Of a DNA stretch of 23,043 nt, positions 1,264 through 20,321 are shown piece after piece; position 1 is the stretch's first letter, and the number at the start of each line of letters is the position of its first letter. The notes beneath the pieces were generated by a model. The model did no database searches and was not told where the DNA came from. It was given only the letters and a program-made list of their open reading frames with translations. This DNA comes from a virus: the IMG/VR virus record IMGVR_UViG_3300020377_000034, positions 1 to 23,043 of that record; one strand, 5' to 3'. A program made the translations under genes and the position numbers.

Positions 1264-1376
1264 AGTATTGTAATAGTTTGTGATCCGTCAGGATTGTCGG
1301 TAATTGTTATTTTTTTGTTAGGATTTTTTCTTTTTAATAGAAACTTAAGTCTCCATCTTTTTAATAGTTTTTTCAT
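1260..1376 (-). CDS. Very basic 38-aa protein, unknown
   Basis: A 38-codon frame sits exactly between two genes. Its ATG (1376-1374) overlaps the TGA of the upstream nuclease gene as ATGA, and its own TGA (1262-1260) overlaps the next ATG as ATGA. The product starts MKKLLKRWRLKFLLKRKN. The first 20 residues are strongly cationic with alternating Leu and Lys/Arg and would make an amphipathic helix. The second half (KKITITDNPDGSQTITIL) looks like a beta hairpin. This suggests nucleic-acid or membrane binding, but that is inference only. Coupling on both ends makes chance unlikely. Confidence 0.7.
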   Translation of the reverse strand: MKKLLKRWRLKFLLKRKNPNKKITITDNPDGSQTITIL

Positions 1377-2101
1377 CTGTAAATGTGAAACATCATTCCA
1401 TGATAACCCGAAGTATATTTTTTACCTGATCCTTTCATCTGTAAATGAAATAACTTCTCGCCATCCTTTGTTCTAAACTCTGCGGTAGTATTATTTAATG
1501 TCCACTTACCAGTTTTAACCTTACTTTGTAAAGTTTGTAAAGGGATCATAGTTATATTCTCTGTTCCCTTCCTATGCCAAATAAGTGTGTTGATACTTTC
1601 TCCTGAGAATCCTCTCTCAACAATTACTCTTAAAACTTCCATTTTATTGGTGTTAATCCACCTGAGAAATGCTGCTGATACCTTAGTTTCAATATTTTCC
1701 TTATATACCCTATTCTGATGTATTTCTTTATCAGTAAGTTTTAGTTTAGGATGTTTTTTCTGGACTATAGATACCTGTTCCTTATTAGGATAACCGAAAA
1801 ACTGAGTTAAGAATAGTTCACATAATGTACCCTCTAATTTGAAATGTTCGATCCATTTAGAGGTAGAATATAATCCTACTTGAGTATGATTCTTTGATGC
1901 ACTCTTAACTGAATACTTCCAGTTACTATTCTCTTCTACAATATCAACTTTGGTATTTGATCTACCATCAACTTTATGTTTACCACCAAACAAATTGTCA
2001 AATGTAAGTGCAAGTCTGTGTTCAAATTCATGCCCTGCTTTCTTAGCATTTCTACCTGCAATTTGTGATGTTACCATGTCTGACCTTTTTGGAATTTTCA
2101 T
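1373..2101 (-). CDS. Putative PD-(D/E)XK-type nuclease
   Basis: A 242-aa protein. The N-terminal third carries a helix with GHEFEHRLA (residues 23-31) and then a strand with an acidic residue (KVDIV, D53). This is followed, after about ten residues, by a strand ending in Ser-Val-Lys (YSVKSAS, K66). The order Glu / Asp / (S)xK, followed by small and basic residues, resembles the catalytic core of PD-(D/E)XK restriction-like nucleases, with Ser in place of the usual Glu before the Lys. The rest is basic and may bind DNA. This is motif-level recognition, not a family match. An ATG at 2077 (MVTSQIAGRN) has a better ribosome-binding sequence (AAAAAGG, 6 nt before it) than the ATG at 2101, which has none, so the protein may be 8 residues shorter. 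A structured RNA lies immediately upstream (2111-2248). The stop is coupled to the 38-aa gene by ATGA. Confidence 0.6.
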   Translation of the reverse strand: MKIPKRSDMVTSQIAGRNAKKAGHEFEHRLALTFDNLFGGKHKVDGRSNTKVDIVEENSNWKYSVKSASKNHTQVGLYSTSKWIEHFKLEGTLCELFLTQFFGYPNKEQVSIVQKKHPKLKLTDKEIHQNRVYKENIETKVSAAFLRWINTNKMEVLRVIVERGFSGESINTLIWHRKGTENITMIPLQTLQSKVKTGKWTLNNTTAEFRTKDGEKLFHLQMKGSGKKYTSGYHGMMFHIYR

Positions 2102-2270: not shown

Positions 2271-3794
2271 TCAAGAAAGATAGGGCAAATGTGACAGTTC
2301 TTTAACTGTCTCCAAATATTCCCTATGATCTACCATAACAGTTTTACTTTTTTCATGTGTGAGAGAATCATGTTGTTGTTTAGCATCATCATATAATAAT
2401 TCTGGATTTTTTCTTGACCACATATACTCCATAACTGCCTTTTGATTAAACATATTGATACCCTTCATTACCTGTATGTAATTATCATTTCCCCAGTAAT
2501 CCAACATATCGTCAGTATCAAATATATCTAAGAACTCATGTTTACATTTTTCCTCTATTGTTTTTACCCAATCAGTTTTGTGATCTTTCATGTGTCTCCA
2601 AAATTTAGAGTCAGTTCTATTTGTACAATAGTGTAAGTTTAAAAATTGTGTGTAATCAAATAGTTTTTTATTCTGACACATATTAAATCTATCTCTATTA
2701 TATTCTAAACTCTTGAGAGTAGAATTTACACTCAAGAATGTTTCTATCATAAAAGTGAGATATTGGTGGGTCAATGCTTCGAGAGGTTCAATAAATCCCC
2801 CTGCTAAACCTACTGCTACACAATTACCGATCCATGCTTTCTTTTGATACCCACTATTCCATTTAATTATTCTAGGTTCATCATTTAATTCAACTGAATG
2901 ATTTTTTTGTAACCAATTATTATAGTCCTCTTTTGCTTCCTCATCAGTAGTAAACTTAGATGAATACAAGTAACCCGTACCATATTCAGTTTGTGACGGG
3001 ATTTGCCAAATCCACCCATGCTTAGTTGCATTTGCTAGTGTGTAACTTGGAATAGAACCACTATTATTTTTTACTTTCTGTGGTATTGCCCTATCTAACG
3101 GTAAATGCTCTGATAAATCTACCCATTCTGCATCATCTAACTTATTAAGTAACATAGCATCAAGTCCACTTGCATCTACAAATAGATCCGCAGTCACTTC
3201 TCCACTCTTCTCACATATAATACTCTGAATATTTTTACCATCAGTTTTTACCTCACTTACTTTATCTTCTATAATATCAACTCTACCTTTGAGATATTTA
3301 AACAGAAAACCACATAATTTATCTGTTGTTATATGAAATGCAAAATCATGTTTATGTAACTCATTATTAGCAGGGACGGTATTAGTTGCCTTACTGAAAT
3401 TAATACCACCATCATAACAATTATTAATTAAAGAATAGAATGAACTTACATTACTTGATAATTCTGGATTTCTAGTATCTGTTTCATCATGAGTGACCTC
3501 TGCAAATCCATGATAGTATTCTGTGTCTGGAATCCAATCTTTAAATAATACACCTAACTTGATTGTTGCATCTAATTCTCTAATAGCATCCTCTGTGTTA
3601 TATCCTAAAGTTTCTTGAAATACATCAACAAAACTAGGTGTAGTTCCTTCTCCCACACCTATACTTTGATTCTCTGGATTATAATATATTGATATATCAA
3701 CTTTCTCTTTCCAAAAATTATTCATTAGTGCAGCAGCAACCAACCCAGATGTGCCACCTCCAACTATAACTATTTTTTTATGTTCAAAATTCAT
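2271..3794 (-). CDS. FAD-dependent (tryptophan-type) halogenase
   Basis: A 507-aa flavin-dependent halogenase of the tryptophan halogenase (PrnA-like) family. It is predicted to use FADH2, O2 and halide to make a hypohalous acid that halogenates an aromatic substrate through a lysine. Seen in order: the FAD-binding VGGGTSG (residues 11-17), GVGEGTTPS (46-54), IKLGVLFKDW with the candidate catalytic Lys at 79, the FAD-site DLFVDASG (203-210), the halogenase signature WIWQIP (261-266), and GGFIEPLEA (332-340). Length matches the family (about 500-540 aa). The usual Ser-Thr-Gly after EPLE is replaced by Ala-Leu-Thr, so the substrate may differ. I start it at ATG 3794, which overlaps the upstream stop as ATGA; the frame also extends two codons to a TTG at 3800. 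The preceding gene is a halogenase-like paralogue. Cyanophage Syn10 is reported to encode VirX1, an iodinating halogenase, so a phage role is precedented. The natural substrate is unknown. Confidence 0.9.
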   Translation of the reverse strand: MNFEHKKIVIVGGGTSGLVAAALMNNFWKEKVDISIYYNPENQSIGVGEGTTPSFVDVFQETLGYNTEDAIRELDATIKLGVLFKDWIPDTEYYHGFAEVTHDETDTRNPELSSNVSSFYSLINNCYDGGINFSKATNTVPANNELHKHDFAFHITTDKLCGFLFKYLKGRVDIIEDKVSEVKTDGKNIQSIICEKSGEVTADLFVDASGLDAMLLNKLDDAEWVDLSEHLPLDRAIPQKVKNNSGSIPSYTLANATKHGWIWQIPSQTEYGTGYLYSSKFTTDEEAKEDYNNWLQKNHSVELNDEPRIIKWNSGYQKKAWIGNCVAVGLAGGFIEPLEALTHQYLTFMIETFLSVNSTLKSLEYNRDRFNMCQNKKLFDYTQFLNLHYCTNRTDSKFWRHMKDHKTDWVKTIEEKCKHEFLDIFDTDDMLDYWGNDNYIQVMKGINMFNQKAVMEYMWSRKNPELLYDDAKQQHDSLTHEKSKTVMVDHREYLETVKELSHLPYLS

Positions 3795-5170
3795 ATACAA
3801 TCGTATCCTATTTCTCCAAATGGTTCTGGTGGATCAACATTACCCAAAGTTGATAATAAATGAGAATATGGACTACCTAAACCTAATGAATACTCATAAA
3901 ACATATTTGCATTATTCATCCATGAGTACGGTAATATTAATGCTCCACTAGCATTTTGTGAGTGATGTGCTATTCTAAAATCTTCCTCTGTAAATGTCTC
4001 ACTTATAATATTATCTAAGAACTTATGACCTGCAAATACGCCAGGATGTGAGAATACTGGACTATTCAAATACTCTGTTGCTTCTTTTTTAATTCTATTC
4101 CAATATGGTGTATCATGTCTTGAACCATATTGATATGTAAAACATAAGAAAGACTGTAAAGTTTGTATAATAAAACTACTAAATTGCAACTGTAACATGT
4201 GGTCATGCACTTCTCTATCTCTAGCATTATCATTAAACAAATACCTACATATTTGCTCTGCAATAAAGGCACTTGATTCAGCACTTGTACCAGGTGCACC
4301 AGGTTCTATATTAATAAGTGCAGATCCATTTCTAATGTATCTTTTATTTTTAGGATGTATTACATAATTTGATATTTTAGGTTTCCAATTGTGTGGTATA
4401 AAACTATTTTCATCCCAATTATTATTTAAAGATAAGTTTATAAATGTCTCTGGAAATACCCCTTTAAAATCCTCTATAACCTGTTCTTTGGTGCATATTG
4501 ATGAATCGTATAGGTAAACCCATCTTTGCTTATCCTGTAACGGTATGCCCACTATATGACCGTATTGTGCAGCATACTCAATAGTATAATTCCAATGACT
4601 TGGTTCGGGATTCTCAAATATTAATGCAGTATTACTGAATACGACACTAGGATTCATATAATCATCTTCCCATCCCAGTGGATTTTTTTCTGTGCAGTCT
4701 ATTACATAATCATATTCATTACCATTAATCGTACATCCATCATCTGTAACTTGAAATGAGTCGATAGTCTGTTGAACTATACTTACTTTATCGCCAAATA
4801 TTTTTCCACCGTCATCAAGAAATAATTTCCTAAGTTTTTCAATATTAAATGTATTGCTACAACCTGACACCATGAAATTCTTATCTCTTCTATTACCCCA
4901 ACCAACATATTTGTATCCACAACTATCCACACCATCACAATATTTTTCTAGGACTCTTTTCGTAAAAAATATTTCTCTCTCTAATATTTCTTGAAAGGCA
5001 ACTCCTATGCCACTTAACATGTATGGATATACTTTGTCAGGGTCATGTATTAAGGTGAACTCATCATCACCATATTTTTCCCTAGCATCATATCTTCTGT
5101 TGTTGACTAATAATCCAAGTTGAATAAATGCTTCGGGTGTTGCTCCAACTATGGCAATTTTTCTACTCAT
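3791..5170 (-). CDS. Degenerate halogenase-like flavoprotein paralogue
   Basis: A 459-aa protein laid out like the neighbouring halogenase. It has an N-terminal beta-alpha-beta start (KIAIVGATPEA, residues 4-14), a DYVIDCT segment (154-160) in place of DLFVDASG, GIPL (208-211) where the WxWxIP signature would be, and ALINIEPGAP (284-293) where FIEPLE would be. The glycine motif is altered (VGATPEA instead of GGGTSG), the tryptophans of WxWxIP are absent, and no clear equivalent of the catalytic lysine motif is visible. It is therefore probably related to flavin-dependent halogenases but with changed or lost halogenating activity. It could be a partner subunit, a flavin-binding regulator, or a monooxygenase with another substrate. 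It overlaps both neighbours by ATGA (3791-3794 and 5167-5170), so oxygenase, paralogue and halogenase are made from one coupled unit. Relationship inferred from motif order only. Confidence 0.7.
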   Translation of the reverse strand: MSRKIAIVGATPEAFIQLGLLVNNRRYDAREKYGDDEFTLIHDPDKVYPYMLSGIGVAFQEILEREIFFTKRVLEKYCDGVDSCGYKYVGWGNRRDKNFMVSGCSNTFNIEKLRKLFLDDGGKIFGDKVSIVQQTIDSFQVTDDGCTINGNEYDYVIDCTEKNPLGWEDDYMNPSVVFSNTALIFENPEPSHWNYTIEYAAQYGHIVGIPLQDKQRWVYLYDSSICTKEQVIEDFKGVFPETFINLSLNNNWDENSFIPHNWKPKISNYVIHPKNKRYIRNGSALINIEPGAPGTSAESSAFIAEQICRYLFNDNARDREVHDHMLQLQFSSFIIQTLQSFLCFTYQYGSRHDTPYWNRIKKEATEYLNSPVFSHPGVFAGHKFLDNIISETFTEEDFRIAHHSQNASGALILPYSWMNNANMFYEYSLGLGSPYSHLLSTLGNVDPPEPFGEIGYDCI

Positions 5171-5742
5171 TTTATAGGAAAGAAATTAAAATTGATTAGG
5201 ACTCTTCTCTCACTTTGAGTCGGTGATCCTGCATGATAATAATTCGAGGGAAATACTATCAATCTACCTTTTTTTGGTGACACTTGATCCACTGGTTTCC
5301 ATTCATGATTATGTCTGTCAATTTCTACTCTATCATTCAAATCACATTCATCAAATAGATAGGTATCGCCAGTAGAATCTGTAGCATAATATATAGCACT
5401 AAAACCACCTGCATCTGTGGTATCAGTATGCGGTGGATAGTGTGGTAATTTTTTAGTTATTGGTGTCTGTAATATACCTCTAATTCTAACTGGTTGATAG
5501 TTTAATAATATACCATCTACTATTTCACTCATCATTCCAATTAAGGTATGATACAGGGGCATGTCCCATATACGATTGTCCTCAAATATATTAAGAATAA
5601 ACTGTGGATAACCACCTTTCTCGCCCTTGTAGTCCATAGAATCTCGCCATGACCACGCTATCTCTTGACTTAATAGTTGTTTTTCTATTATTTTTTGATA
5701 ACTGGGACTTATAAAATCATCATAAACTTTAAACTTCATCAT
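5167..5742 (-). CDS. 2-oxoglutarate/Fe(II)-dependent oxygenase
   Basis: From ATG 5742 this is 191 aa. It has a double-stranded beta-helix dioxygenase signature. The iron ligands are H105 and D107 in PPHTDT and H170 in YYHAGSP, with R180 (SERRVL) in the position that binds the 2-oxoglutarate carboxylate. The family couples decarboxylation of 2-oxoglutarate to hydroxylation of a substrate such as a protein side chain or small molecule. The frame is open up to 5793, but those 17 extra residues overlap the upstream gene and lack family character, so I use MMKFKVYDDF. The 3' end is coupled by ATGA to the halogenase paralogue, which suggests a shared modification pathway. The stretch before the HxD motif is not diagnostic, so the substrate is unknown. 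Confidence 0.85.
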   Translation of the reverse strand: MMKFKVYDDFISPSYQKIIEKQLLSQEIAWSWRDSMDYKGEKGGYPQFILNIFEDNRIWDMPLYHTLIGMMSEIVDGILLNYQPVRIRGILQTPITKKLPHYPPHTDTTDAGGFSAIYYATDSTGDTYLFDECDLNDRVEIDRHNHEWKPVDQVSPKKGRLIVFPSNYYHAGSPTQSERRVLINFNFFPIK

Positions 5743-5995
5743 CTTTTTGTAAAGCATTAAATGGAATAACTTTATCGTCAAGTAGAAAATCAAACATCAT
5801 ATCTGGATCTTCAAAATTTTCCTCTACATTGTCCATAAAACCTTTTATCTCTCTAATTAATTTCCAACAAGATTCTTGTTCAATTCTCTCTTCTGGAGAT
5901 AAATCTACAAACCTACCCAACCTAGCATAATAATCATACTTTAAAGTAATATATTCTCTTACTTTGATAAAGTCCTTAAATGTAGGATTTTTCAT
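5729..5995 (-). CDS. Hypothetical acidic helical protein, 88 aa
   Basis: A soluble, acidic and probably all-helical protein beginning MKNPTFKDFIKVREY. It has an Asp-rich C-terminal part (EDPDMMFDFLLDD). I chose the ATG at 5995 because it overlaps the upstream TGA as ATGA (5992-5995). A longer version from a GTG at 6022 would add nine residues. Its last codons overlap the oxygenase gene by about 14 bp. No known domain recognised. Confidence 0.65.
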   Translation of the reverse strand: MKNPTFKDFIKVREYITLKYDYYARLGRFVDLSPEERIEQESCWKLIREIKGFMDNVEENFEDPDMMFDFLLDDKVIPFNALQKDDEV

Positions 5996-6201
5996 AATTT
6001 TTCCCCAAATGTTTCTTTCCACCTTCCAATTGCCACTTTCACATCCTCTAGTTTATTACTATCTGAATAAACCACACACCACTTGGATACTCTATCAAGC
6101 AAGGTATCGTCTATGTCAGGATATAATTCTTTTATTTGTGGCAAGAATACTTTTGCTTCTTCCCTCAAACTTGTTTTAGTGTTATGCACTACTTTGCCCA
6201 T
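5992..6201 (-). CDS. Hypothetical protein, 69 aa
   Basis: A small soluble protein (MGKVVHNTKTSLREEAKVFL...) with a charged helical N-terminal half and WCVVYSDSNKLEDVKVAIGRW in the middle. It overlaps the upstream gene by 13 bp (that gene stops with TAG at 6189-6191) and the downstream one by ATGA, which supports genuine expression. There is no signal peptide or membrane segment. Function unknown. Confidence 0.65.
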   Translation of the reverse strand: MGKVVHNTKTSLREEAKVFLPQIKELYPDIDDTLLDRVSKWCVVYSDSNKLEDVKVAIGRWKETFGEKL

Positions 6202-7361
6202 GATTTTACAACGGTAATGTTTGCTTGACGGAACTCATCATCAATAAATTTTAGATTAGTCCCTTTATAGGATACCACATATCCCTCTGGTTGACTAGGT
6301 ACATTATTTACAAATGTTTTTATCTTATCTACTTTGTTCAACTGTTTGATAACCATACTTTTAGCAGTACGAACTGATATGTAAGATGCACATACAAAAT
6401 ATATTTCTAACTCATTTTGTTGTATGAATCTTAGACCCATTTCTCTCATGTGTCTATATCTTTTCTTACTTGTTTCAGTTTTTTTACTTCTGATCTCTTC
6501 CTCCATTTTGTTAGAGTAAAATATTGCGAAGTCCCCTGCAACTCTTTTAGTATCAACAATATTTTTACCAGTACGAATTCTCTGATTGAAATACTGTTTG
6601 AATAGTGTTGCCATCAAAAACTTAGATGTGCCATACTCATGAATGAGTTTAAGGAACTTACTAGATTTTTTTAGTGAACCAGTTGCACGATTGATTAGAG
6701 CAGTGTACTTGGCACTATCACGCACATTGAACTTGCAAATACCAGACTCATCTACAAAGTTAGCATCTGCAACATAACACTCAGCAGTGCTAGGTATTCT
6801 TAGAGGTGCATTTACTGCTGCTGTAGCAGTTTGTATGGTGTCTCCTAAGTAAACTGTGTGAAATACAATACCTAACTTTGCCTCAGTAATACTAATACCT
6901 TTGAGTGAGTCAACTGGTACAGCATAAGTAAGAGCATTAGGTGTAAAAGTAATATATCTTTCTCCATCTAAATTTGCATATCTTGTATCATTAGTAAATA
7001 ATAAATCTCCTTGAACCATACCTCTGATACCTAGTGTAGGTAGATACTTAAGACATGTTTTAAGTTTGTCTGCTAACCCTTTATCTTCGGGTGCAAAATA
7101 ATATAAATCTATATCTGTCTCTGTATAACAAACTTTAGGATTGAACTTATTGAATACTGATTTAGTGCCAACAAAAAATCTATCAGTCTGTGGATCAATA
7201 CCACAAATAATTGCAGGTGCACCGTCCCACTTAGTACTGATCTTAAGATTTGATTGTTTGCCTGTCAGCATATAACCAAATGATTTTAAAAAATCAACAG
7301 TTTCTTCTGGAGAACCATTGAGTATATTATCTTCTAGGTGTTCGAGATGTGTGTTCTTCAT
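6189..7361 (-). CDS. Putative nucleotidyltransferase/ligase-like protein
   Basis: From ATG 7361 this is 390 aa, starting MKNTHLEHLEDNILNG. I recognise the type as a common cyanophage protein of unknown function (possibly what Pfam calls DUF6267, from memory). In the sequence, STKWDGAPAI (Lys at about residue 44) matches the KxDG motif I of covalent nucleotidyltransferases (DNA/RNA ligases and capping enzymes). GMVQGDLLF (114-122) sits where the acidic motif III would be, and GIVFHTVYLG (about 164-173) resembles motif IIIa. PEGYVVSYKG (358-367) matches motif IV, with LKF (370-372) as motif V. The order I-III-IIIa-IV-V is that of the superfamily, but about 180 residues separate IIIa from IV, more than usual, so there is an insertion. 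If active, it would form a lysine-AMP and act on RNA or DNA ends. A TATAAT lies 6 nt before this ATG. The frame stays open upstream to a GTG at 7412. Confidence 0.7.
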   Translation of the reverse strand: MKNTHLEHLEDNILNGSPEETVDFLKSFGYMLTGKQSNLKISTKWDGAPAIICGIDPQTDRFFVGTKSVFNKFNPKVCYTETDIDLYYFAPEDKGLADKLKTCLKYLPTLGIRGMVQGDLLFTNDTRYANLDGERYITFTPNALTYAVPVDSLKGISITEAKLGIVFHTVYLGDTIQTATAAVNAPLRIPSTAECYVADANFVDESGICKFNVRDSAKYTALINRATGSLKKSSKFLKLIHEYGTSKFLMATLFKQYFNQRIRTGKNIVDTKRVAGDFAIFYSNKMEEEIRSKKTETSKKRYRHMREMGLRFIQQNELEIYFVCASYISVRTAKSMVIKQLNKVDKIKTFVNNVPSQPEGYVVSYKGTNLKFIDDEFRQANITVVKSWAK

Positions 7362-7367
7362 ATCTCT

Positions 7368-7373
7368 ATTATA
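7368..7373 (-). promoter_or_regulatory. Candidate -10 box (TATAAT)
   Basis: A minus-strand TATAAT 6 nt before the ATG at 7361. No convincing -35 is seen (the best placed hexamer is CGCACA). If used, the message would be leaderless or nearly so and would start the ligase-like gene independently of the fibre genes upstream. Confidence 0.3.
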
Positions 7374-7417
7374 CACCATTTTATACCCTTTGTGCGAGAT
7401 AGGATGTGCCACTTTTC

Positions 7418-8017
7418 TTATTGGAACGGTTTACCACATAACCATACTACCAGACTTTTCCTACTTCCGCTAGTTACAGGTGTCACTTGATGTAACGAAT
7501 AACTTGGAAAGGCAACAATTAAACCTTTTTTCTTTGGAAGTGTGGATAGTTTGCTTGAATGAATCTGAAAATCACCACCCTCATATTCGTCACCATCTGA
7601 CAACTGTAAGGTGATGCTCAGTTTTCTTTGAGGATGCTCTGATCCTTTCACACCATTATCTATATGCCATCCATAGAAACAACCATCAGAATTATATCTG
7701 GTGTATTGTAAATCCTCACTAAAACAAGATATGTCAAATCTCCAGTGTAATCCGTTAAGACACCTACTTATATTTGATAACCTTTGATATATCCATTCGC
7801 TATCGTTATTTAAACCAATCCAAGAGTTTAACGACTTTCTTATTTCTGTATTTGTATCTTGATGCTCTGGGTCACCACCCACTGTAGAAGTCTGTGCCTT
7901 ACTAGACTCACCTAGTTGAATGATTTTATCACACTCTTCCTGTGTGAATCCATCTTCCCAAGTTGCAAAATCGCACTCATCATAAGTTGGATGAGGTAAT
8001 ATAGGATAATATGCCAT
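7418..8017 (-). CDS. 2OG-Fe(II) oxygenase, prolyl-hydroxylase-like
   Basis: A 199-aa protein with the full prolyl-4-hydroxylase/PKHD-type core. Iron ligands are H118 and D120 in GWHIDNG and H176 in LHQVTPV, with R186 (GSRKSLVVW) binding 2-oxoglutarate. The YEGGDF segment (145-150) between them is typical of this group. The reaction would be Fe(II)- and 2-oxoglutarate-dependent hydroxylation, commonly of proline or another residue in a protein. It lies 6 bp downstream of the collagen-like gene (8024-9793), which is full of Pro-Gly-X-type repeats. That makes the collagen-like protein the obvious candidate substrate; this is inferred from position, not shown. The start MAYYPILPHPTY is the only sensible one. 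A possible late-promoter match (AATAAATA, 8067-8074) lies inside the upstream gene, but I give it little weight. Confidence 0.88.
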   Translation of the reverse strand: MAYYPILPHPTYDECDFATWEDGFTQEECDKIIQLGESSKAQTSTVGGDPEHQDTNTEIRKSLNSWIGLNNDSEWIYQRLSNISRCLNGLHWRFDISCFSEDLQYTRYNSDGCFYGWHIDNGVKGSEHPQRKLSITLQLSDGDEYEGGDFQIHSSKLSTLPKKKGLIVAFPSYSLHQVTPVTSGSRKSLVVWLCGKPFQ

Positions 8018-8023
8018 AAAAAA

Positions 8024-9793
8024 TTAGAAGATTACTCTAATGTCTCCTCCATTTGGTATCACTTGATATTTATTACCATTAACTGCCCTTCCTGCAGCAC
8101 CTCCACCAGGATTTGATTTACCCCAGTCACCACCTGCAACACCAGGTGTACCAGGCGTTCCTGGCGTTCCTGGTTGCCCATCACCACCACCTGTGCCAGG
8201 TGAACCAGGTGTGCCAGGTGAACCAGGTGTCCCATCTGTGCCAGGTGTCCCATCTGAACCATCACCGCCAGGTTGCCCATCTGTGCCAGGTGAACCAGGT
8301 TGCCCATCTGTAGCACTACCACCTTGAGCAGAACCGCCAGGTTGCCCTGCTGTGCCAGGTGTCCCTGCTGAACCTGATCCGCCACTTGTACCACTTCCTC
8401 CAGATGTGCCAGGTGTCCCTGCTGTGCCAGGTTGCCCTGCTGTAGCAGGTGTTCCTGCCCCGCCAGGTGTGCCAGGTGTGCCAGGTGTTCCTCCAGAACT
8501 GGTTAATGTACCTGAGAGATTATTCCATCCTCTTGCTGCTGATCCTGACCCTGCAAATCCTCTAGTTCCTCCTACACCATTATATCCACCTATTCCGCCC
8601 GATCCGCCCTGTCCGCCTGTGCCACCGAATCCTTTAGATCCACCGTACCCTGCAGATCCACCGCCTCCACCAGATCCGCCCTGCCCACCAGATCCACCAG
8701 CTCCGCCCGCACCACCTGACATATTGGCACGGTTTTGTACTGCGTATTGTTGATTTGTTCTAGTATTCTTAGTTTGCTGAGTTGCTTGAGTTGTAGTTTG
8801 ACAACTAGGATACCTTGACCACCATTCTCTGCGTCTTGAACAGTTTTGACTATAACTTAAAATAGTTTCTTGTGTTGTACCTGCTACCCTCTGCCACTTA
8901 TATGATGTCCAAGTTTGTTGACCAGGTGTGCCAGGTGAACCAGGTGTGCCAGGTTGACCATCTGCACCAGGCGATCCATCAGAACCAGATGAACCAGGCG
9001 ATCCGTCTTGACCGTCTGAACCAGGCGATCCGTCTGCACCAGGCGAACCAGGCGTGACATTAGCAGTGCCAGGTGAACCAGGCACACCGTTTATACCGTC
9101 ATATCCACCACCGCCACCTGCCCAGATTTTAGAAGTTGAACCCTCACACTCTACAAATACAACCCTAGATGGGGGTGCAGATGGATTAGTAATATTAATA
9201 GCATGACCGCCAGGTTGTCCAGAACCAACACCTTTTGCTCCACCTGCTGCCATGATACCCATACCTGCAGGGGAATTAGCAACAAATATATTAAGATTAG
9301 ATGATGCAGAACTGGCAATGGATACAGCAGGGACGCTGACTTGATCCGATACCATCCTACCTCTAATTTTTAAGAGTTTAGTTATATTTCTATTAAGATT
9401 ATTACCCCAGTTTACATTATTAGTTGGTGTATCTGGTCCTGTAAGTGTACCTACATCAAATTGTTGTTCAGTTGCGTTTGGATCTTGTTCTATACAATAT
9501 TCTTTTATAATGTCCTTAACATCTTGAGGTGAGATAGCACCACTTGTAGGAACTCCTACATTTTCTACAGCATCTAAAATGTATGGTAAATGAGGTGTAC
9601 TAGATGTAGGATGTGCAGGGAAATTATATGGTGCATCTATATCAGTAACTCTGAACATTTCAGATGCAGATATGGATTTAGATGTATCACCTATCGCTGC
9701 CCTGATTGTACCAAATGAATACTCAGTATTATTTGGATATTGTGATGTTTTTAATAGTCTTTGTGTGGTATTTGACCAATCTGGTGCTGCCAT
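8024..9793 (-). CDS. Collagen-like / polyglycine-rich virion fibre protein
   Basis: A 589-aa protein in distinct blocks. Residues 1 to about 210 form a non-repetitive N-terminal domain (MAAPDWSNTTQRLLKTS...). Then comes a first collagen-like stretch of GSPG, GTPG and GADG triplets (DNA about 8918-9090). Next is a 60-residue insert with W, R, Q and Cys (YKWQRVAGTTQE...), then a block of GGX repeats (DNA about 8560-8715). A second, longer collagen-like stretch follows (about 8125-8500), and the end is GGAAGRAVNGNKY...DIRVIF. Collagen triplets trimerise into a triple helix, and GGX blocks can form polyglycine-II helices as in the S16 gp38 adhesin. Both fit a tail fibre or adhesin tip. It is 4 bp downstream of the 856-aa fibre and 6 bp upstream of a prolyl-hydroxylase-like gene. 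Not an enzyme; probably a receptor-binding or fibre-tip component, which is inference. Confidence 0.82.
   Translation of the reverse strand: MAAPDWSNTTQRLLKTSQYPNNTEYSFGTIRAAIGDTSKSISASEMFRVTDIDAPYNFPAHPTSSTPHLPYILDAVENVGVPTSGAISPQDVKDIIKEYCIEQDPNATEQQFDVGTLTGPDTPTNNVNWGNNLNRNITKLLKIRGRMVSDQVSVPAVSIASSASSNLNIFVANSPAGMGIMAAGGAKGVGSGQPGGHAINITNPSAPPSRVVFVECEGSTSKIWAGGGGGYDGINGVPGSPGTANVTPGSPGADGSPGSDGQDGSPGSSGSDGSPGADGQPGTPGSPGTPGQQTWTSYKWQRVAGTTQETILSYSQNCSRRREWWSRYPSCQTTTQATQQTKNTRTNQQYAVQNRANMSGGAGGAGGSGGQGGSGGGGGSAGYGGSKGFGGTGGQGGSGGIGGYNGVGGTRGFAGSGSAARGWNNLSGTLTSSGGTPGTPGTPGGAGTPATAGQPGTAGTPGTSGGSGTSGGSGSAGTPGTAGQPGGSAQGGSATDGQPGSPGTDGQPGGDGSDGTPGTDGTPGSPGTPGSPGTGGGDGQPGTPGTPGTPGVAGGDWGKSNPGGGAAGRAVNGNKYQVIPNGGDIRVIF
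8125..8500. repeat. Collagen-coding minisatellite, long block
   Basis: On plus, the unit CCAGGTGTGCCAGGTG and variants (ccatctg, ccaggtgaa) recur in multiples of 9 bp. This encodes Gly-Thr-Pro-Gly-Ser-Pro and Gly-X-Asp triplets on minus. Near-identical units over nearly 400 bp invite slippage or recombination, so length probably varies between relatives. The block is distinctly more GC-rich than its surroundings. Confidence 0.8.
8918..9090. repeat. Collagen-coding minisatellite, short block
   Basis: A second run of the same repeat vocabulary (CCAGGTG, CCAGGCGATCC) encodes the N-terminal collagen-like stretch of the same protein. Its units favour CCAGGCGATCC over CCAGGTGTGCC, so the two blocks have diverged from one another. 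Confidence 0.75.
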
Positions 9794-9797
9794 AACA

Positions 9798-12368
9798 TTA
9801 ACTGAATGAACCTAGTACAATAGAACCTACTCCAACTAGATTTAGCACCGCAGTATTTCCTACTGTAATTATTTCGTAACCAGTGGTTGCACTACCTACT
9901 AATGATCTCCACTGATCGTCTGCACAATATACTTGAAGTTGATGAGTAGGTGAGAAATAACCCATGTTAGATGTTGACCAACCAACTGGTTCATCTGAGG
10001 GTTCAAATGGTGTTTGTGCAGTTTTATTTGCTTCACTCTCAAATATAGGACCTTTAAATCCTCTGACTGATACAAAATCATTAAGTGTTTTACCAAATGT
10101 TTCTGTAAGTATTCCTATAAAGTTACCATCACCTTGACCCATACCAAGTCTCAGGGTCATATCATGCCTACTAAACCATAGGTTACCAGTTTGATCTCCG
10201 TCACTATGGAAGAATGACTGACCACTGTTGTTTGTATTTCCTTCGCAAATTGGTAGGCATAGAGGACCTCCTGCATTTCGCATATCTAATGCACCGCCAG
10301 GTTGCTCAGTATTGAAACCAATCTGAACTATGTTAGTACCCATACCAACAGTACCACCAATACCTGTATGATCTCCATATAGTTTGATGTTCCTGTATAT
10401 TTCTATATTTTCAACACCATTAGATGTTGCTGCAACTGCTGTAGTTCCAATTCCTATACTACCACTTTCAAATATACTTACTACATCCTCTAACTCATTT
10501 GTGCCTGGTAATCTAGCATAACCAACATATAATTTACTGTTGTCTATTCTGTCTCCAGATGTAGAACCAATACCAACACCCTGACTATCAGGATCTAAAA
10601 AGATTTCTGACTGTGTGGCATATATTTCAAGACCATCAGTTATTTGTTTTTGTGCAGTATTAATACCAATATATTGTCCAAATATTTGTGTGTTTTGACC
10701 ACCTGTTACTAATATATCGTTAAATGTGCTAACTCCAGTTGCTTTATATCCTAGTGCAGATACAACACCTGTTAGTCCATCAATTTCAATAACACCCGTA
10801 GATATAGTTCCAATACCCGTTACATTTAAACTACCTGCTACATCTAAGGTACTACACTCAGCAGCACCTAATGTAGAAATACCTGCGACATTAAGATTAG
10901 AACCTGTGATATTTTGTCCAACTATATTTCCTGTCTGTAAATCTCCTGATGATTGTATATCTGTTGCTCCAACAATAGCACCATTCATAGTGATGCCAGA
11001 ACCAACAATTAATCCACCACCATTTAATATTGATACGGAAGAACCTGCTACGGAATTACCAACTACAAGACTACCACCAATAGTTTGTCCTCCACCTATA
11101 TTTGAACTAGATGTTGCGTCTAATTCTTGTGCGGTTACTGTTCCTGTTACATTAAAGTCAGCACCACCTGTTACAGTTCCTTGAAATGTTGATATACCTG
11201 CAACTGATAGACCTGCACCGACATTCAGTACATTTATATTTTGTGTAGAACCTAATTCAACTGTACCAACTAAACTACCACCAATTGATATACTTCCACC
11301 TAATATTAAATCTCCATTGTGAACTCTGACTGTGCCGATAAATCCTGCAGCATCACCAATAGCAGATTCAGTAAGTCCTACTCCTAAGAATTCTCCAACA
11401 ATTAAATCTTCTCCTACTGTACTAACACCTGCACCTCTAAGGAATGTAGGTGCTGTGCCATTGATGTCAACAGAATCTACTTGTATGTCTGGATCACCTG
11501 CCAATGCGTATGCAATCGCTGCATTAGACGCTGTGGTTGCAGTTCCACTAAATGTATTTGCTGTAATTATACCATTACTACCTACGATTCCACCTGATAC
11601 TTGTAATGTAGAGAAACTTGAAATACCTGAGAATGTTCCTCCTACACCTAAAATATTATTAACAGTTATGTCTGGTGAACCAGTTAATCCTTGTGCATTA
11701 TCCGCTAATGTTGCGTTAGTTGCAGTTCCTATGAATTCTGGGGCAGTAACCTGATAAAATACAGAGATGGATGAGAATGTACCAACCTCAGCATTTACAT
11801 TACCCTGACCTGCACCTGTTTGATTTAATACTGTAATATTTCTTGTTACTATCCCTTCAAATGTACCAATACCACTTTCACCATCAAAGAATATCTCATG
11901 ACCTACACCAAAATCTGCACCACCTCTAGGTTGCTCTGTAGCAATACCAACATCTTTTAAGGAATATATCGTATTACCTGCACCAGGATTTACCCAAACT
12001 GAAGCAGGGATGTTCTTTAACTGTGATCCATCACCAAAATATTGAATTGCATTTACTATACCTGTTTCTGATACCGTAAATCCAGTTGTCCCTACACCTA
12101 CTTGAAATGCTGCCTCTGGAACGGATGTTCCTATACCAACTGATGCTCCCGTACTAACAGCAATATCATTCTGAAATGTTGATATTCCCGTAACTTTTAC
12201 ATTATTAAATTCAGAATTTTCAGATACTATTACATTACCACGGACATCTAACTGTTGTCGAGGTATGGTACTACCAATACCTACCAGACCATTATTAGAA
12301 ATCAGATCATCAGTATCAACTTGAATACCATCTCTGAAATTAATTACTGTTTTATAATTACTTGGCAT
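9798..12368 (-). CDS. Tail-fibre-like structural protein with GIST/GIGT repeats
   Basis: An 856-aa protein beginning MPSNYKTVINFRDGIQVDTD and then a LDVRGNVIV-type entry. The body is built of short beta-strand repeats of the type V-x-G-I-S-T-F (VTGISTFQND, VAGISTFQGT, VAGISTLGAA, ATGVSTFNDI) interspersed with GIGT and VGGS turns. This points to a trimeric beta-helical or beta-prism fibre shaft. The C-terminal about 150 residues are non-repetitive and may form the tip (QVYCADDQWRSLVG...). There is no S74 domain, unlike the neighbouring 1751-aa fibre. A GATAAATA late-promoter match overlaps the end of the upstream gene and would place a start about 23 nt before this ATG. The next gene follows after 4 bp. 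Virion location is inferred from composition and context. Confidence 0.85.
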   Translation of the reverse strand: MPSNYKTVINFRDGIQVDTDDLISNNGLVGIGSTIPRQQLDVRGNVIVSENSEFNNVKVTGISTFQNDIAVSTGASVGIGTSVPEAAFQVGVGTTGFTVSETGIVNAIQYFGDGSQLKNIPASVWVNPGAGNTIYSLKDVGIATEQPRGGADFGVGHEIFFDGESGIGTFEGIVTRNITVLNQTGAGQGNVNAEVGTFSSISVFYQVTAPEFIGTATNATLADNAQGLTGSPDITVNNILGVGGTFSGISSFSTLQVSGGIVGSNGIITANTFSGTATTASNAAIAYALAGDPDIQVDSVDINGTAPTFLRGAGVSTVGEDLIVGEFLGVGLTESAIGDAAGFIGTVRVHNGDLILGGSISIGGSLVGTVELGSTQNINVLNVGAGLSVAGISTFQGTVTGGADFNVTGTVTAQELDATSSSNIGGGQTIGGSLVVGNSVAGSSVSILNGGGLIVGSGITMNGAIVGATDIQSSGDLQTGNIVGQNITGSNLNVAGISTLGAAECSTLDVAGSLNVTGIGTISTGVIEIDGLTGVVSALGYKATGVSTFNDILVTGGQNTQIFGQYIGINTAQKQITDGLEIYATQSEIFLDPDSQGVGIGSTSGDRIDNSKLYVGYARLPGTNELEDVVSIFESGSIGIGTTAVAATSNGVENIEIYRNIKLYGDHTGIGGTVGMGTNIVQIGFNTEQPGGALDMRNAGGPLCLPICEGNTNNSGQSFFHSDGDQTGNLWFSRHDMTLRLGMGQGDGNFIGILTETFGKTLNDFVSVRGFKGPIFESEANKTAQTPFEPSDEPVGWSTSNMGYFSPTHQLQVYCADDQWRSLVGSATTGYEIITVGNTAVLNLVGVGSIVLGSFS

Positions 12369-12395: not shown

Positions 12396-15300
12396 TTATT
12401 TATCTTTAATGTCATCAACCTTATTGGAAAGATCTTTGACTGCCTCGATTAGTAGAGGTATTAATTTGTTGTAGTGGACACCCTTAGTTCCATCAGGTTT
12501 AGTTGATACTGCTTCGGGTAAAACCTTCTCAATGTCTTGTGCAATCACACCAATATCATGTCCAGAATAGTTTTTGTTACCTTCCTTCCAATCATATTCA
12601 GTACCACGAATTTGCATAACTTTAGCAAGAGGATTATCTAATAGTGATATATTCTCTTTTAATGATATGTCAGATGTTTGACCATAGAACGCAACAATGT
12701 CATCACAAACATGTAAAGGTCCTCCACAGAATGTTGCACCTGCACCTGCGAAGAATACATCACCACTAAATGTTGTGAATCCTGTATTTTGTACCAGTTG
12801 ATTATAAATTACTGGTGCATCATACTGTGTTTCAGTTGCAATTGCAACTCTAAAACCTGGCGAAGCATTAAGAATTAAATCACCTGTATTGGTTTTAGTT
12901 GTGATCTCAGTTTTGTTAGTACCAACACCGACTATCACATTGTTAACAACAGCACCATTAGGGAACTCACCTGTAAAGTCTATTGTACCTGCTAGTTCAA
13001 TACTACCACTAGATACAACTTTACCTGTCATAGATATGTCATTTGTAAATGTAACAGGACCATCAAACTGAGATAGTATATTTTGACCTGTACCACCTTC
13101 AACATTCAATCTTTGTTTAACAGTAACTTCATCAAATACAACAGAGTTTGCGGAAGGATCTTCACCTGTTATGCTAGGAATAGGAATATCAAATGATTTT
13201 TCCTGTCCAGTTGCAGAGTTAATCTTCTTGTTTCCAATGAAGAAGTCACCTCTGTTGTTCAGTCCAGTATAAACAGTTGTACCACCACCTCTGTTTTGTG
13301 ATTGAGCAAGGAATTCCTCTGTCTCAGTTAGAGTTCTATTTTGAACCTGTGGCAATGCAGTAGAATAGTTACCAGGACCATAACCAAGATATTCAAATGT
13401 GTGTCCAGATGCCCTTAGTATGGACGGTCTTCTACCCTCCACTGCTAGGGTATTCAGTTTTCTAATTTGAGAATTAATTTTGTGGTTCTTAGGAACTGTT
13501 CCCAACTGTCCTCTAAGAACAGTAAGAGAATCATTATTTGCTCCACTTAATCCTGTAGCAGATACTCTTATGATCTCCTCATCAATCTCTAAGTAATCTC
13601 CTAGTTGGAATCTATTTGCAGTTCCGATACCACTAGCATGCTGAACTGGGAACGCTGTAGTTGTAGTTACAACATCAGTTGTTAGTCCAACAGTATCATT
13701 TCCATATAACTTGAAGTATCGAGAACCTATTGCCTCTTTGACATTAACTGCTTGATTATTGTCTGAGAAAGCATGTGGTAAGATTCTGAATCCTGCAACA
13801 TATACTGGATCGGTAACTGTTTTTGCTGTAAACTGATTAGGATTTGAAATAGTATTACTATAGTAGTCACCCACTTTATTATTATTGTTATCTACCAATG
13901 TAAACTGTGATCCTTGCCTAATACCATGAGGTAATGTTGTGGTAAATGTTGTTAATCCTGTTGTTGCATCAAACTGAGTGGATGCTATGGCAACAGAAGG
14001 ACCTGAGTTAAAGACATATTGACCTGCTAATATAGTTGGATCTCCTGTTGTAGCAGCGATAGCGATACTACTCTTAGAAGGGACACTTACAATTCTAAAA
14101 TATCCACCAACAGTTTGACCAATACCTGTGACTTGAATTGTGTCATTAATACCACTGATTAATCCTGTGGTTGGAACTCCAATTGATGCTCCTACAAAAT
14201 TCTCAGGGAATAATGTTTCACCACCTTGATAACCAGAACCAGGCGATTGTATTTCAAATGTGGTTATTGCAGTAGAACCAACACCAACTGTAATGTGTGC
14301 AGTTGCACCATTCCAATTTTGTCCTCCATCTAATAATCTTACATTATACTTATCTGTAGTAGCAAATCCTGTACCACTACTCATAAATGAGGGATTATCA
14401 AAATCAGCAATACCATTGAGAGAATGTTGATCTGTTAGTTGAACTGTTACAATACCTGCTGATACTGGTGAAACACTAGAAACACCAATACCTAAACCAA
14501 AGTTTTGTGCAAATTTATCTATTGCTTCTCTGGTTGCTGAGTTAAGTAAGTTGTTAGAGTCAACCTTACCCAGAGGAGTTCTTCTAGCAAATGATTTTGT
14601 TGCAGGTGGATTCTTTCTTATATTATCTCTATCTAATTGTGGATAAAAATCACTAACCTGTTGACTGTATTTTTGATTTGAAAATTCGCCAGGTGGTGAA
14701 TAATCAGATGCTAAAATTTCTAGTAGATATACACCATCAGTCTCATCTTTAACATAAGGTTTTAGTACAGTCGATCTGTAAACATCAAAGTTACCTTTAT
14801 TATCCTTTACAGCAAATCTAGGTAAACCTTGATCTCTAGTTGCAGTATTGTCTATAAAGTTACCAGTATTTTTTACATCACCATCTATATCTACATTTTT
14901 ATACTGAAACTCCATGCTATTGGGAACTGCAGTTACAGTATAGAATCCATTATAACCTTTCTTTCCAACACCTGTAGGGTTATTACTGTCAAGAACATTC
15001 TCGACCAGTACCATCTGACCCTCTCTTACTTTATGTGGTTTCTCTACTCTGACTGTTACTGTACCACCAACTTCGCTAGTTGTTGCGATAAACCCGTAAT
15101 TTCTCTTGAAATTATTATCTTCTTGAGTAATTGTAGTTTTAGTAGCGTCAGATGTTTTTGCAAATCCAGTTGAAGCAGATTGCTGCAAAATAAATCCTTC
15201 TACGGGATCTCTTGAGTTACTTGCTTCTTTTGGAATTACATAACGAACTTTATATAATTTGTTATCAATACCTCTACGATCTTCAAATCTCTTAAAGTAT

Positions 15301-18291: not shown

Positions 18292-18413
18292 ACTACCATG
18301 AAGTAATGTTAGTATATAAAAAATCCCCATACATTCCCCTAAGTCGTATTCCTAAAATTTTCTGGACTGCCTTAGTTGTAGCAGTATTATGTCAATTCCC
18401 TACATTAACCTAA
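18288..18413 (+). CDS. 41-aa single-pass membrane microprotein
   Basis: The ATG at 18288 overlaps the preceding TGA as ATGA and has the best Shine-Dalgarno sequence in this block (AGGAG at 18276-18280, 7 nt before the ATG), so it is likely translated. The N-terminal 20 residues are polar and basic (MNYHEVMLVYKKSPYIPLSR). They are followed by one membrane segment (IFWTALVVAVLCQFPTL). Its last 25 bp overlap the start of the next gene. No known family. Confidence 0.6.
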   Translation: MNYHEVMLVYKKSPYIPLSRIPKIFWTALVVAVLCQFPTLT

Positions 18414-19216
18414 ATGGTATTCAAATAGACTTTAGTAGAATTAGTGAAGTCAACATAGGTGATACTCGTGTTTGGGTGATAAATCCTCCAACAGCGATTC
18501 CACAAAGAGTCCCAGTAACTACTGAGATTGGAACTCCAATTGTGGATATACCTGGTTGCGTGAAGATAAATCGTGAGAATTCCAGTCGGAAGGAAGGCAA
18601 TAAGAACAAGGTATTAGTAGATGACGACCCCAAAGGTAATATTGTATTATGTGACGGTGGGATGCCTTATTACGAACCTGCTGACTATAAATCAGATGGG
18701 TTAACATGGGAAACAGTAAAAGTAGAACAAGAAGAACCTCCTCCAGTAAATACGGGTGATCCACCTCCTCCTCCAGACTCAAATACAGAAACACCTGATA
18801 CACCAATACCTCCAAAAGAAGTAGAGTGTCCTCCTCCTAATGCTAGAAGAATAGGTGATAGGTCACAAACTGGGAAAGAACAGATAAAAGAGTACAAATT
18901 AACACCTGATGGTAAAATTTGTGAGACAATTTGGGAACCAGTTCCTGCAGTGCAACAATTCTTACCTTCTATAGAAACTGTATCAACAACAGCAACCATA
19001 GCAACAGTCGCTACTGTATCTGCCTTGTTTGCTAAACCAATAGCAGACTTGCTTCTAAAAGTTGTAAAACCTGTTGTTAAGAAAGGTATTACTGCTGTGA
19101 AGAAGAAGTTTGGTCGTCCTGAGAAGAGGATGTCCCGATCTGAATGGGTAACCCAAGAATATCGGAAGTCGAGAGGTCTACCTCCGATTGGTCAGAAGGT
19201 GAAGAAGAAGGATTAA
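18389..19216 (+). CDS. Proline-rich structural-type protein, C-terminal anchor
   Basis: A 275-aa protein. Residues 1-110 form a soluble domain (MSIPYINLNGIQIDFSRISE...). A Pro/Glu-rich linker follows at about 112-150, including PPPVNTGDPPPPPD and CPPP. A second small domain (150-185) leads into a hydrophobic Thr/Ala/Val segment at about 195-215 (TVSTTATIATVATVSALFA). The C-terminus is very basic (KPVVKKGITAVKKKFGRPEK). The order linker, membrane-like helix, cationic tail fits a virion protein that touches membrane or DNA. I remember similar cyanophage virion structural proteins, but this is not certain. The last 128 bp overlap the opposite-strand gene 19089-20321. No terminator is visible. 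Confidence 0.75.
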   Translation: MSIPYINLNGIQIDFSRISEVNIGDTRVWVINPPTAIPQRVPVTTEIGTPIVDIPGCVKINRENSSRKEGNKNKVLVDDDPKGNIVLCDGGMPYYEPADYKSDGLTWETVKVEQEEPPPVNTGDPPPPPDSNTETPDTPIPPKEVECPPPNARRIGDRSQTGKEQIKEYKLTPDGKICETIWEPVPAVQQFLPSIETVSTTATIATVATVSALFAKPIADLLLKVVKPVVKKGITAVKKKFGRPEKRMSRSEWVTQEYRKSRGLPPIGQKVKKKD

Positions 19217-20321
19217 TCCATTTGGGTTGTGGTAGGTTATGCTCATGTGGTATAACCATACCGCCTGGTGCTGTAACAACTACATCAGCACATATAGCAG
19301 CGTATTGAGATTTAGGATGGAAAAATATACCTTGTTTTTTAAGTTCTCCACAATTTTTTAATCTTGCCAATTCAAAATCAAGTCTTTTATTAGATACAAC
19401 TTGAGTTGCTAGATTTATCTGTGCCTGTGCTGCCTCTTGGCACTGCTTTTGTAATTTCCTATTCATAGGTATTGACAATGTTGCAGAGACACCAAAGTTA
19501 AAACTTTGATTTGCCTTCATGTCAGTCCTGACTGGTTTGAACCAAGTTGGTTCTAAGTTACCATTTTGCACTGCGTCTGGTACACCATCACCTGCAGGGA
19601 CATCAACTGTAATCTCCATATCTTCGCCATCAGGAAACCATCTAGTGCCATCTGCCTTAGTTCGATCGTCATACCATGATTCCCACGGATAATTCTTAAC
19701 TGTTATTGTTTGCTCTACTGTTCTACCACTTATATCTGTTACATTATATTGTGGTTCATTATAAAAATCTTCCCACGGATGTTTTCTACTATCTGCATAT
19801 TGAATATATGGTGTTACATTGAATGTACTTCCTTGACATTGCACTCCACCACCATAAGTATTAGTTATGTACGGACCCTGTAGGACCTGTATAGCTTGAT
19901 TCGTCACAGAACCAGACGAATTAGCTATTGGATTAGCTGTGGCCGACACGCCTCCTACGCCTTCAGCAAGTGCGACATTTGGTGATAGAAGACTACCTAT
20001 GGTCGCTATTGCGTAAATGTGCTTGTTGTGTCGGTGACGCTTTCTATTGTGGTTGTCCGTTGTATTATTGTTTGGTTCGTCATACCAGGTCCTTGGTAAC
20101 TTTGAGTGAACTGGAACGCACCTGTCGGATCTGTTATTGTAAAGTTTGTTGGTTGTGAGAAGTCTAACGAGTCGAAAGAAGATGTTACGCTTCCCGTTAT
20201 TATCCCGTTGCCATTTGTCGCTGACACGCCTGGTGTCACCGATACTGTTGATGTAGTCACTGGAGGATTTAGATTTTCCCCGTTGTTGTCTACTCCTACT
20301 CCCGTTACTGAGTACTCCCAT
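19089..20321 (-). CDS. Exported cyanophage protein, start uncertain
   Basis: The conserved part begins at about 20018 and runs about 309 aa. It starts with a signal-peptide-like segment (YAIATIGSLLSPNVALA, then EGVGG). GVSATANPIANSSGSVTNQA follows, and the C-terminal region contains RLDFELARLKNCGELKKQG and FHPKSQYAAICADVVV. I recognise this as a conserved, exported cyanomyovirus protein of unknown function. No ATG, GTG or TTG lies near the conserved start. The frame is open back to an ATG at 20321, but that adds 101 residues read out of frame over the upstream gene, rich in Arg/Asn and unlike a domain. An ATT at 20018 is the best-placed non-standard start. The last 128 bp are antisense to the proline-rich gene and encode a Ser-rich tail. 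Confidence 0.65.
   Translation of the reverse strand: MGVLSNGSRSRQQRGKSKSSSDYINSIGDTRRVSDKWQRDNNGKRNIFFRLVRLLTTNKLYNNRSDRCVPVHSKLPRTWYDEPNNNTTDNHNRKRHRHNKHIYAIATIGSLLSPNVALAEGVGGVSATANPIANSSGSVTNQAIQVLQGPYITNTYGGGVQCQGSTFNVTPYIQYADSRKHPWEDFYNEPQYNVTDISGRTVEQTITVKNYPWESWYDDRTKADGTRWFPDGEDMEITVDVPAGDGVPDAVQNGNLEPTWFKPVRTDMKANQSFNFGVSATLSIPMNRKLQKQCQEAAQAQINLATQVVSNKRLDFELARLKNCGELKKQGIFFHPKSQYAAICADVVVTAPGGMVIPHEHNLPQPKWINPSSSPSDQSEVDLSTSDILGLPIQIGTSSSQDDQTSSSQQ

What the first reader, a model, noticed from the sequence alone, without database searches (positions are those of the whole stretch)
2271..5742. Coupled cassette: oxygenase, degenerate halogenase-like protein, halogenase
Three ORFs joined by ATGA overlaps: a 2OG-Fe(II) oxygenase, a 459-aa protein with halogenase layout but altered FAD and signature motifs, and a halogenase with intact WIWQIP and Lys79. 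Known: a cyanophage halogenase (VirX1) with iodinating activity has been reported. New here is the pairing with a likely inactive or re-purposed paralogue and an oxygenase, which suggests a multi-step modification pathway or heteromer.
Basis: partly seen in the sequence, partly recalled or inferred. Interest (0 to 1): 0.75.

Follow-up and report, generated by a model that had tools for sequence, protein, structure and literature searches.

The report
Phage tail-fibre halogenase and inactive partner
A marine, probably cyanobacterial, virus carries three linked genes - an iron oxygenase, a halogenase that has lost its catalytic residues, and a normal halogenase - right behind its tail-fibre genes, and comparison with dozens of related viruses suggests that they chemically modify the fibre with which the virus recognises its host.

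Summary
Three genes at 2271-5742 (minus strand) overlap by ATGA: a 2OG-Fe(II) oxygenase, a 459-aa halogenase-fold protein ("deg") and a motif-intact flavin halogenase ("hal"). deg is not decaying: dN/dS is about 0.07-0.20, orthologues are 25-78% identical, and the predicted fold matches tryptophan halogenases. Yet it lost residues that 178 of 178 other viral halogenases keep (Lys79) or nearly all keep (GES, WxW/F, EPLE).

The interpretation needs correcting. (1) deg is not hal's close paralogue. It is sister to another, shorter viral halogenase, and hal belongs to a distant family (S-SRM01 type): the active partner beside deg has been swapped, and is sometimes absent. (2) The constant feature is the locus: fibre - fibre - collagen-like fibre - prolyl-hydroxylase-like oxygenase - DUF6267 - deg, deg being present in 21 of 21 contigs found without using deg as bait. 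(3) hal's own family sits separately between fibre and adhesin-tip genes in about 20 contigs.

Best explanation: a tail-fibre modification module, in which hal halogenates an aromatic side chain of a fibre (candidate: invariant Trp325), deg is a non-halogenating partner, and the oxygenase hydroxylates. The fibre link is well supported; chemistry, substrate and heteromer are inferred. An oxygenase-halogenase pair in cyanophage S-SSM6a was described before.

The parts
2271..3794 (-). hal: flavin-dependent halogenase, 507 aa, all signature motifs intact; S-SRM01-type family
3791..5170 (-). deg: 459-aa halogenase-fold protein lacking GxGxxG, GES, Lys79, WxWxIP and the second Glu of EPLE
5167..5742 (-). 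oxy: 2OG-Fe(II) oxygenase, 191 aa, facial triad HTD...H plus Arg present; 50% identical to the S-SSM7 oxygenase that overlaps a halogenase gene
5729..6022 (-). 97-aa protein of unknown function, overlaps the start of oxy; conserved in the clade with a downstream partner
5992..6201 (-). 69-aa ORF of unknown function
6189..7412 (-). DUF6267 protein (KWDG motif), constant gene of the fibre locus
7418..8017 (-). P4H-like 2OG-Fe(II) oxygenase next to the collagen-like fibre
8024..9793 (-). collagen-like fibre protein, 589 aa (Pfam Collagen 7.8e-8)
8726..8905 (-). basic central segment of the collagen-like fibre; Trp325 (codon 8819-8821) is the only column of the segment conserved in at least 90% of homologues; candidate modification site
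9798..12368 (-). 856-aa fibre protein (phrog tail protein)
12396..17651 (-). 1751-aa tail fibre with C-terminal Peptidase_S74 chaperone
1373..2101 (-). 242-aa protein (phrog_25220), gene that closes the cassette in most relatives

Best explanation
The trio is the lineage-specific end of a conserved tail-fibre module in T4-like, probably cyanophage, viruses. The module makes and chemically finishes a collagen-like fibre. The P4H-like oxygenase would hydroxylate the Gly-X-Pro stretches; the intact halogenase would make HOX with FADH2, O2 and halide and halogenate an aromatic side chain of a fibre or adhesin protein, best candidate Trp325 (WW motif) in the basic linker of the collagen-like fibre; deg no longer halogenates and instead recruits or holds the fibre for the neighbouring active halogenase, probably in a heteromer; the second oxygenase adds a hydroxylation. 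Shown: gene order, homology, fold, motif loss, selection, partner swapping, association with fibre genes. Inferred: enzymatic activity of each protein, the substrate, the contact between deg and hal, the order of steps.
For: deg occurs in 21 of 21 contigs with the P4H-DUF6267 arrangement found by a P4H-anchored scan, and not beside P4H or DUF6267 in other settings. Active partner beside deg in clearly different states: downstream WIWQIP type, downstream short type, upstream short type, none. deg and short partner are sister clades (99/97); hal belongs to the S-SRM01 family (100/99); the upstream partner joins the short-partner clade while its deg joins the deg-alone clade, so it was probably acquired separately. 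hal's own family lies between fibre and adhesin-tip genes in about 20 other contigs and in S-SRM01. deg has lost residues near-invariant in 178 relatives while dN/dS is 0.07-0.20. Trp325 is the only column conserved in at least 90% of fibres within a 60-residue segment. Precedents for peptide Trp: MibH, which needs prior proline hydroxylation, and SrpI (PMC12615548); QhpG (PMC7876137).
Against: No biochemical or virion mass-spectrometry data. Gene neighbourhood is indirect evidence and tail-fibre regions gather many accessory genes. Ten of 31 distinct deg genes have no halogenase neighbour (two more lie too near a contig end to tell), so deg does not need one in cis. WW versus single W in the fibre tracks one deep split only, so it is not independent evidence. 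Trp325 could be conserved for structure. Contigs are fragments and partly redundant.
Confidence: 0.45

Rival explanations
1. The halogenase and oxygenase are auxiliary metabolic genes that make a halogenated small molecule (amino-acid or sugar derived secondary metabolite, or a capsule decoration) during infection; their place behind the fibre genes is only a hot spot for inserted genes.
For: Proposed in PMC7824862 for the S-SSM6a cluster, which holds an oxygenase next to a halogenase; S-SSM7, whose region matches S-SSM6a's, carries a relative of the window's oxygenase (50%) overlapping a halogenase gene beside carbamoyltransferase and sugar genes. VirX1 iodinates many free small molecules (PMC8407142).
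Against: No sugar, carbamoyl or other biosynthetic genes were recognised in the window's locus; deg and hal families are each tied to fibre modules across many contigs.
Confidence: 0.25
2. deg is an enzyme in its own right that uses the FDH fold for another flavin reaction (for example peptidyl-Trp hydroxylation, as QhpG), and the halogenase next to it acts separately.
For: deg-alone lineages keep GAGADA and Lys79 and may still bind FAD; deg also occurs without a halogenase neighbour; QhpG (7ctq) is among the structural matches (Z 20.6).
Against: In the window clade the Rossmann glycines and Lys79 are lost as well, and the GES and EPLE motifs are lost throughout, which argues against flavin chemistry there.
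Confidence: 0.2
3. Relic: deg is a decaying halogenase duplicate without function, carried along by linkage.
For: Loss of catalytic motifs.
Against: dN/dS 0.07-0.20, full length kept at 25-78% identity, a conserved C-terminal GLGxPYA...PPExFGxI signature, present in every fibre locus examined.
Confidence: 0.02

Closest known systems
VirX1, flavin-dependent halogenase of cyanophage Syn10 (PDB 6qgm)
   Same: Viral FDH with intact motifs; its gene lies a few genes from gp35/37/38-like genes and overlaps a second halogenase gene (CPUG_00131)
   Different: About 29% identity to hal and a different branch of the tree; both Syn10 tandem copies keep their motifs; natural substrate of VirX1 not known to us
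S-SRM01 flavin-dependent halogenase (QPX48017)
   Same: Closest isolate relative of hal (43%); sits between tail-fibre genes and the gp37-gp38 adhesin tip gene
   Different: No deg and no oxygenase beside it
S-SSM7 / S-SSM6a oxygenase-halogenase pair (described as part of a biosynthetic cluster in PMC7824862)
   Same: Relative of the window's oxygenase (50%) whose gene overlaps a halogenase gene
   Different: Distant halogenase branch, no deg, sugar/carbamoyl gene neighbours
Peptide halogenases MibH and SrpI; peptidyl-Trp dihydroxylase QhpG
   Same: FDH-fold enzymes that act on Trp in peptides; MibH acts after proline hydroxylation
   Different: RiPP or quinone-cofactor pathways; no pseudo-halogenase partner known to us

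Membership tests
Flavin-dependent (tryptophan) halogenase - hal | Trp_halogenase domain over full length | tested here: met
   PF04820 1.7e-83, residues 7-452
Flavin-dependent (tryptophan) halogenase - hal | GxGxxG, catalytic Lys79, WxWxIP, catalytic Glu | tested here: met
Flavin-dependent (tryptophan) halogenase - hal | Halogenating activity with FADH2, O2 and halide | not testable with these tools
   needs purified enzyme
Flavin-dependent halogenase - deg | FDH fold | tested here: met
   AlphaFold model, Foldseek 2.6e-17 to PyrH, VIA-align Z 27 to SttH and PrnA
Flavin-dependent halogenase - deg | FAD-binding GxGxxG and GES motifs | tested here: not met
   GATPEA and LSG in all window-clade orthologues
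Flavin-dependent halogenase - deg | Catalytic Lys79, WxWxIP and Glu of EPLE | tested here: not met
   Ser, HIVGIP, EPGAP; Lys79 kept in 178 of 178 scored other viral FDHs
2OG-Fe(II) oxygenase - oxy | HxD...H iron triad and 2OG-binding Arg | tested here: met
   HTD 105-107, H170, R179/R180; family hit 1.1e-7
Peptidyl-tryptophan halogenase (MibH/SrpI type) | Acts on Trp in a peptide or protein | not testable with these tools
   candidate Trp325 only from conservation
Collagen prolyl hydroxylase - 7418-8017 | P4H-like domain next to a collagen-like substrate | tested here: met
   2OG-FeII_Oxy_3 4.2e-17; adjacent to Gly-X-Y protein here and in most relatives; activity not testable

The most novel reading that the evidence does not exclude
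Phages halogenate their own tail fibre: a heteromer of an active halogenase and a motif-stripped pseudo-halogenase modifies a conserved tryptophan of a collagen-like fibre, after prolyl hydroxylation, and the active subunit can be exchanged in evolution while the pseudo-subunit stays.
Probability: 0.3. Interest if true: 0.87.

Novelty: new variant of a known kind. Interest (0 to 1): 0.64.

Why it matters
Cyanophages often carry halogenase genes (20 of 153 cyanophage genomes in PMC10452541), and no natural substrate was found in the papers read here. The data give a concrete, testable answer (tail-fibre or adhesin proteins), name a candidate residue, and describe a conserved halogenase-fold subfamily that has lost its catalytic motifs and whose active neighbour is exchanged. 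If true it would add halogenation to the modifications of virion proteins and a possible way to tune host recognition.

Tried and rejected
Recent duplication of hal to give deg: rejected, the tree places them far apart. Decay of deg: rejected by dN/dS. DUF6267 as pointer to function: AlphaFold model (pTM 0.59) has no PDB match below E 0.5; weak RNA-ligase rows (6vt0, 6vte) fit the KWDG motif but prove nothing. DUF6267 alone as marker of the locus: it is widespread without halogenases. The collagen-like fibre's N-terminal 233 residues find no match in isolate phages, so no cultured phage with this locus was found. Sequence search of deg and of oxy against PDB chains: no hit. WW motif as independent evidence for the partner: rejected, one deep split. 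Papers: no report of halogenated phage virion proteins found in the open library; the VirX1 primary paper was not held. The phage list for hal also held Campylobacter and human faecal phage records; not followed.

Full report
Observation. The three ORFs exist as described on the minus strand, joined by two ATGA overlaps. hal (3794-2271) is a textbook flavin-dependent halogenase by sequence: Pfam 1.7e-83, VGGGTSG, GEGT, Lys at residue 79, GWIWQIP, EPLE. oxy (5742-5167) has the HTD...H...R set of a 2OG-Fe(II) oxygenase. deg (5170-3791) is a halogenase relative by Pfam (4.2e-5) and PHROGs (1.1e-24), and its AlphaFold model (pLDDT 69, pTM 0.74; residues after about 370 poorly modelled) matches Trp halogenases in the PDB at Foldseek E 2.6e-17 and VIA-align Z up to 27.

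What deg lost. In an alignment of 195 distinct viral halogenase-like proteins (119 hal-type, 60 short type, 16 deg), Lys79 is present in 178 of 178 scored non-deg proteins, the first Trp of the WxW motif in 179 of 179, and the Glu of GES in 174 of 178. In the deg subfamily both Trp positions, the GES Glu and the second Glu of EPLE are gone in all 16, and Lys79 and the second Rossmann Gly in 8 of 16. Yet deg evolves under purifying selection: dN/dS 0.07-0.20, like its neighbours, and keeps its own signatures such as a C-terminal GLGxPYA...PPExFGxI stretch.

The conserved unit is a tail-fibre locus. Upstream of the trio lie a 1751-aa tail fibre, an 856-aa fibre protein, a 589-aa collagen-like protein, a P4H-like oxygenase and DUF6267. 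About 45 IMG/VR contigs (partly the same viruses seen in several samples) show this order or part of it, usually followed by the 242-aa gene. A scan anchored on the P4H-like gene, independent of deg, gave 21 contigs with the P4H-DUF6267 arrangement and downstream sequence, and all 21 hold deg; P4H relatives in other settings sit by other Gly-X-Y proteins and have no deg.

The active partner changes. Among 31 distinct deg genes, the neighbour is a WIWQIP halogenase downstream (window, L001-L004, L027, L030), a short GWMFGIP halogenase downstream (L028, L029, L267-L269, L343), the short type upstream (L032-L037, L352, L354, L357), or nothing (L031, L038, L040, L273-L275, L277, L284, L286, L349); two more, L353 and L358, lie too near a contig end to tell. 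The tree has deg as one clade (100/98), sister to the short partners (99/97); the window's hal belongs to the S-SRM01 family (100/99); the upstream short partner groups with the downstream ones while its deg groups with deg-alone lineages, so it probably arrived separately. The tree is unrooted within these groups, so the direction of the swap (short partner first, then hal) is inferred. Deg genes without a neighbour keep GAGADA and Lys79, while those with a downstream partner lost both. That fits relaxation of deg's own chemistry once a partner supplies it, but it rests on few independent events. In the near-genome-length contig G001 (179.8 kb, psbA and psbD, deg without a neighbour) a second, motif-intact short halogenase lies just upstream of psbA.

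Second line to the fibre. Relatives of hal itself (41-46% identical) lie between a fibre gene and the gp37-gp38-like adhesin tip gene in about 20 other contigs and in S-SRM01, in viruses that have no deg there. Other phage halogenase families in the same search do not show this arrangement.

Candidate substrate. In the collagen-like fibre a 60-residue basic segment (window residues 297-356, mean top-residue frequency 0.45) has one column conserved in at least 90% of 20 homologues: Trp325 (codon 8819-8821), in RREWWSRYP here, RRGWWG in the clade with short downstream partners, GGWP elsewhere. This is a lead, not proof; the WW/W difference reflects one deep split.

Comparison with the known. VirX1 (Syn10) is a viral FDH that prefers iodide (PMC8407142); its gene lies near gp35/37/38-like genes and overlaps a second motif-intact halogenase gene. 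Tandem halogenases are common in phages (34 distinct pairs). The oxygenase-halogenase pair in S-SSM6a was described in PMC7824862 as part of a secondary-metabolite or capsule-decorating cluster. Halogenation of Trp in peptides is known for MibH, which needs prior proline hydroxylation, and SrpI (PMC12615548); QhpG dihydroxylates a peptidyl Trp (PMC7876137) and is among deg's structural matches.

Host. The window itself carries no host marker that we recognised. Its tail fibre is closest to Synechococcus phage S-SRM01 (50%) and five relatives with the same locus carry photosystem genes, so a picocyanobacterial host is likely (inference).

Verdict. The cassette is real and the degenerate halogenase is a conserved subfamily. 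The pairing is not a fixed trio: deg is constant, the active halogenase is exchangeable, the oxygenase is clade-specific. The best reading is tail-fibre modification with deg as a non-halogenating partner; the fibre link is well supported, the chemistry is untested.

Noticed in passing
L013 3986-7091 (cyanophage Syn10); L016 3416-6572 (P-RSM6); L130, L132, L135, L142, L146, L147, L154, L173, L181: Tandem, often ATGA-overlapping halogenase genes are common in phages; the gene beside VirX1 (CPUG_00131, annotated hypothetical) is a motif-intact halogenase, and in L154, L173 and L181 one copy carries a GWSW[NE]IN variant of the signature.
   Followed up: partly
L107-L118, L120, L125-L127, L129, L131, L144, L152; L009 3971-8944: S-SRM01-type halogenases lie between a tail-fibre gene and the gp37-gp38 adhesin tip gene in about 20 contigs.
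   Followed up: partly
6189-7412 (-): DUF6267 protein has a KWDG motif reminiscent of nucleotidyltransferases/ligases, is found in 471 phage records, and has no confident PDB fold match.
   Followed up: partly
L386 3635-6900 (G001 contig 18.6-22.2 kb): A 377-aa-frame halogenase with Lys79 and GWMFSIP lies just upstream of psbA and psbD in a phage whose deg has no halogenase neighbour.
   Followed up: no
L267-L270, L342-L347: A second P4H-like oxygenase gene follows the first in the clade with short downstream partners.
   Followed up: no
21963-22526 (-): A third 2OG-Fe(II) oxygenase gene in the window, away from the cassette.
   Followed up: no
L019 5630-15109 (cyanophage S-CREM1): A collagen-like protein, a halogenase and eight genes annotated as 2OG-Fe(II) oxygenases lie within 10 kb.
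   Followed up: no
18389-19216 (+) and 19089-20321 (-): Two conserved phage genes (phrog_570 and phrog_848) overlap tail to tail by about 130 bases.
   Followed up: no
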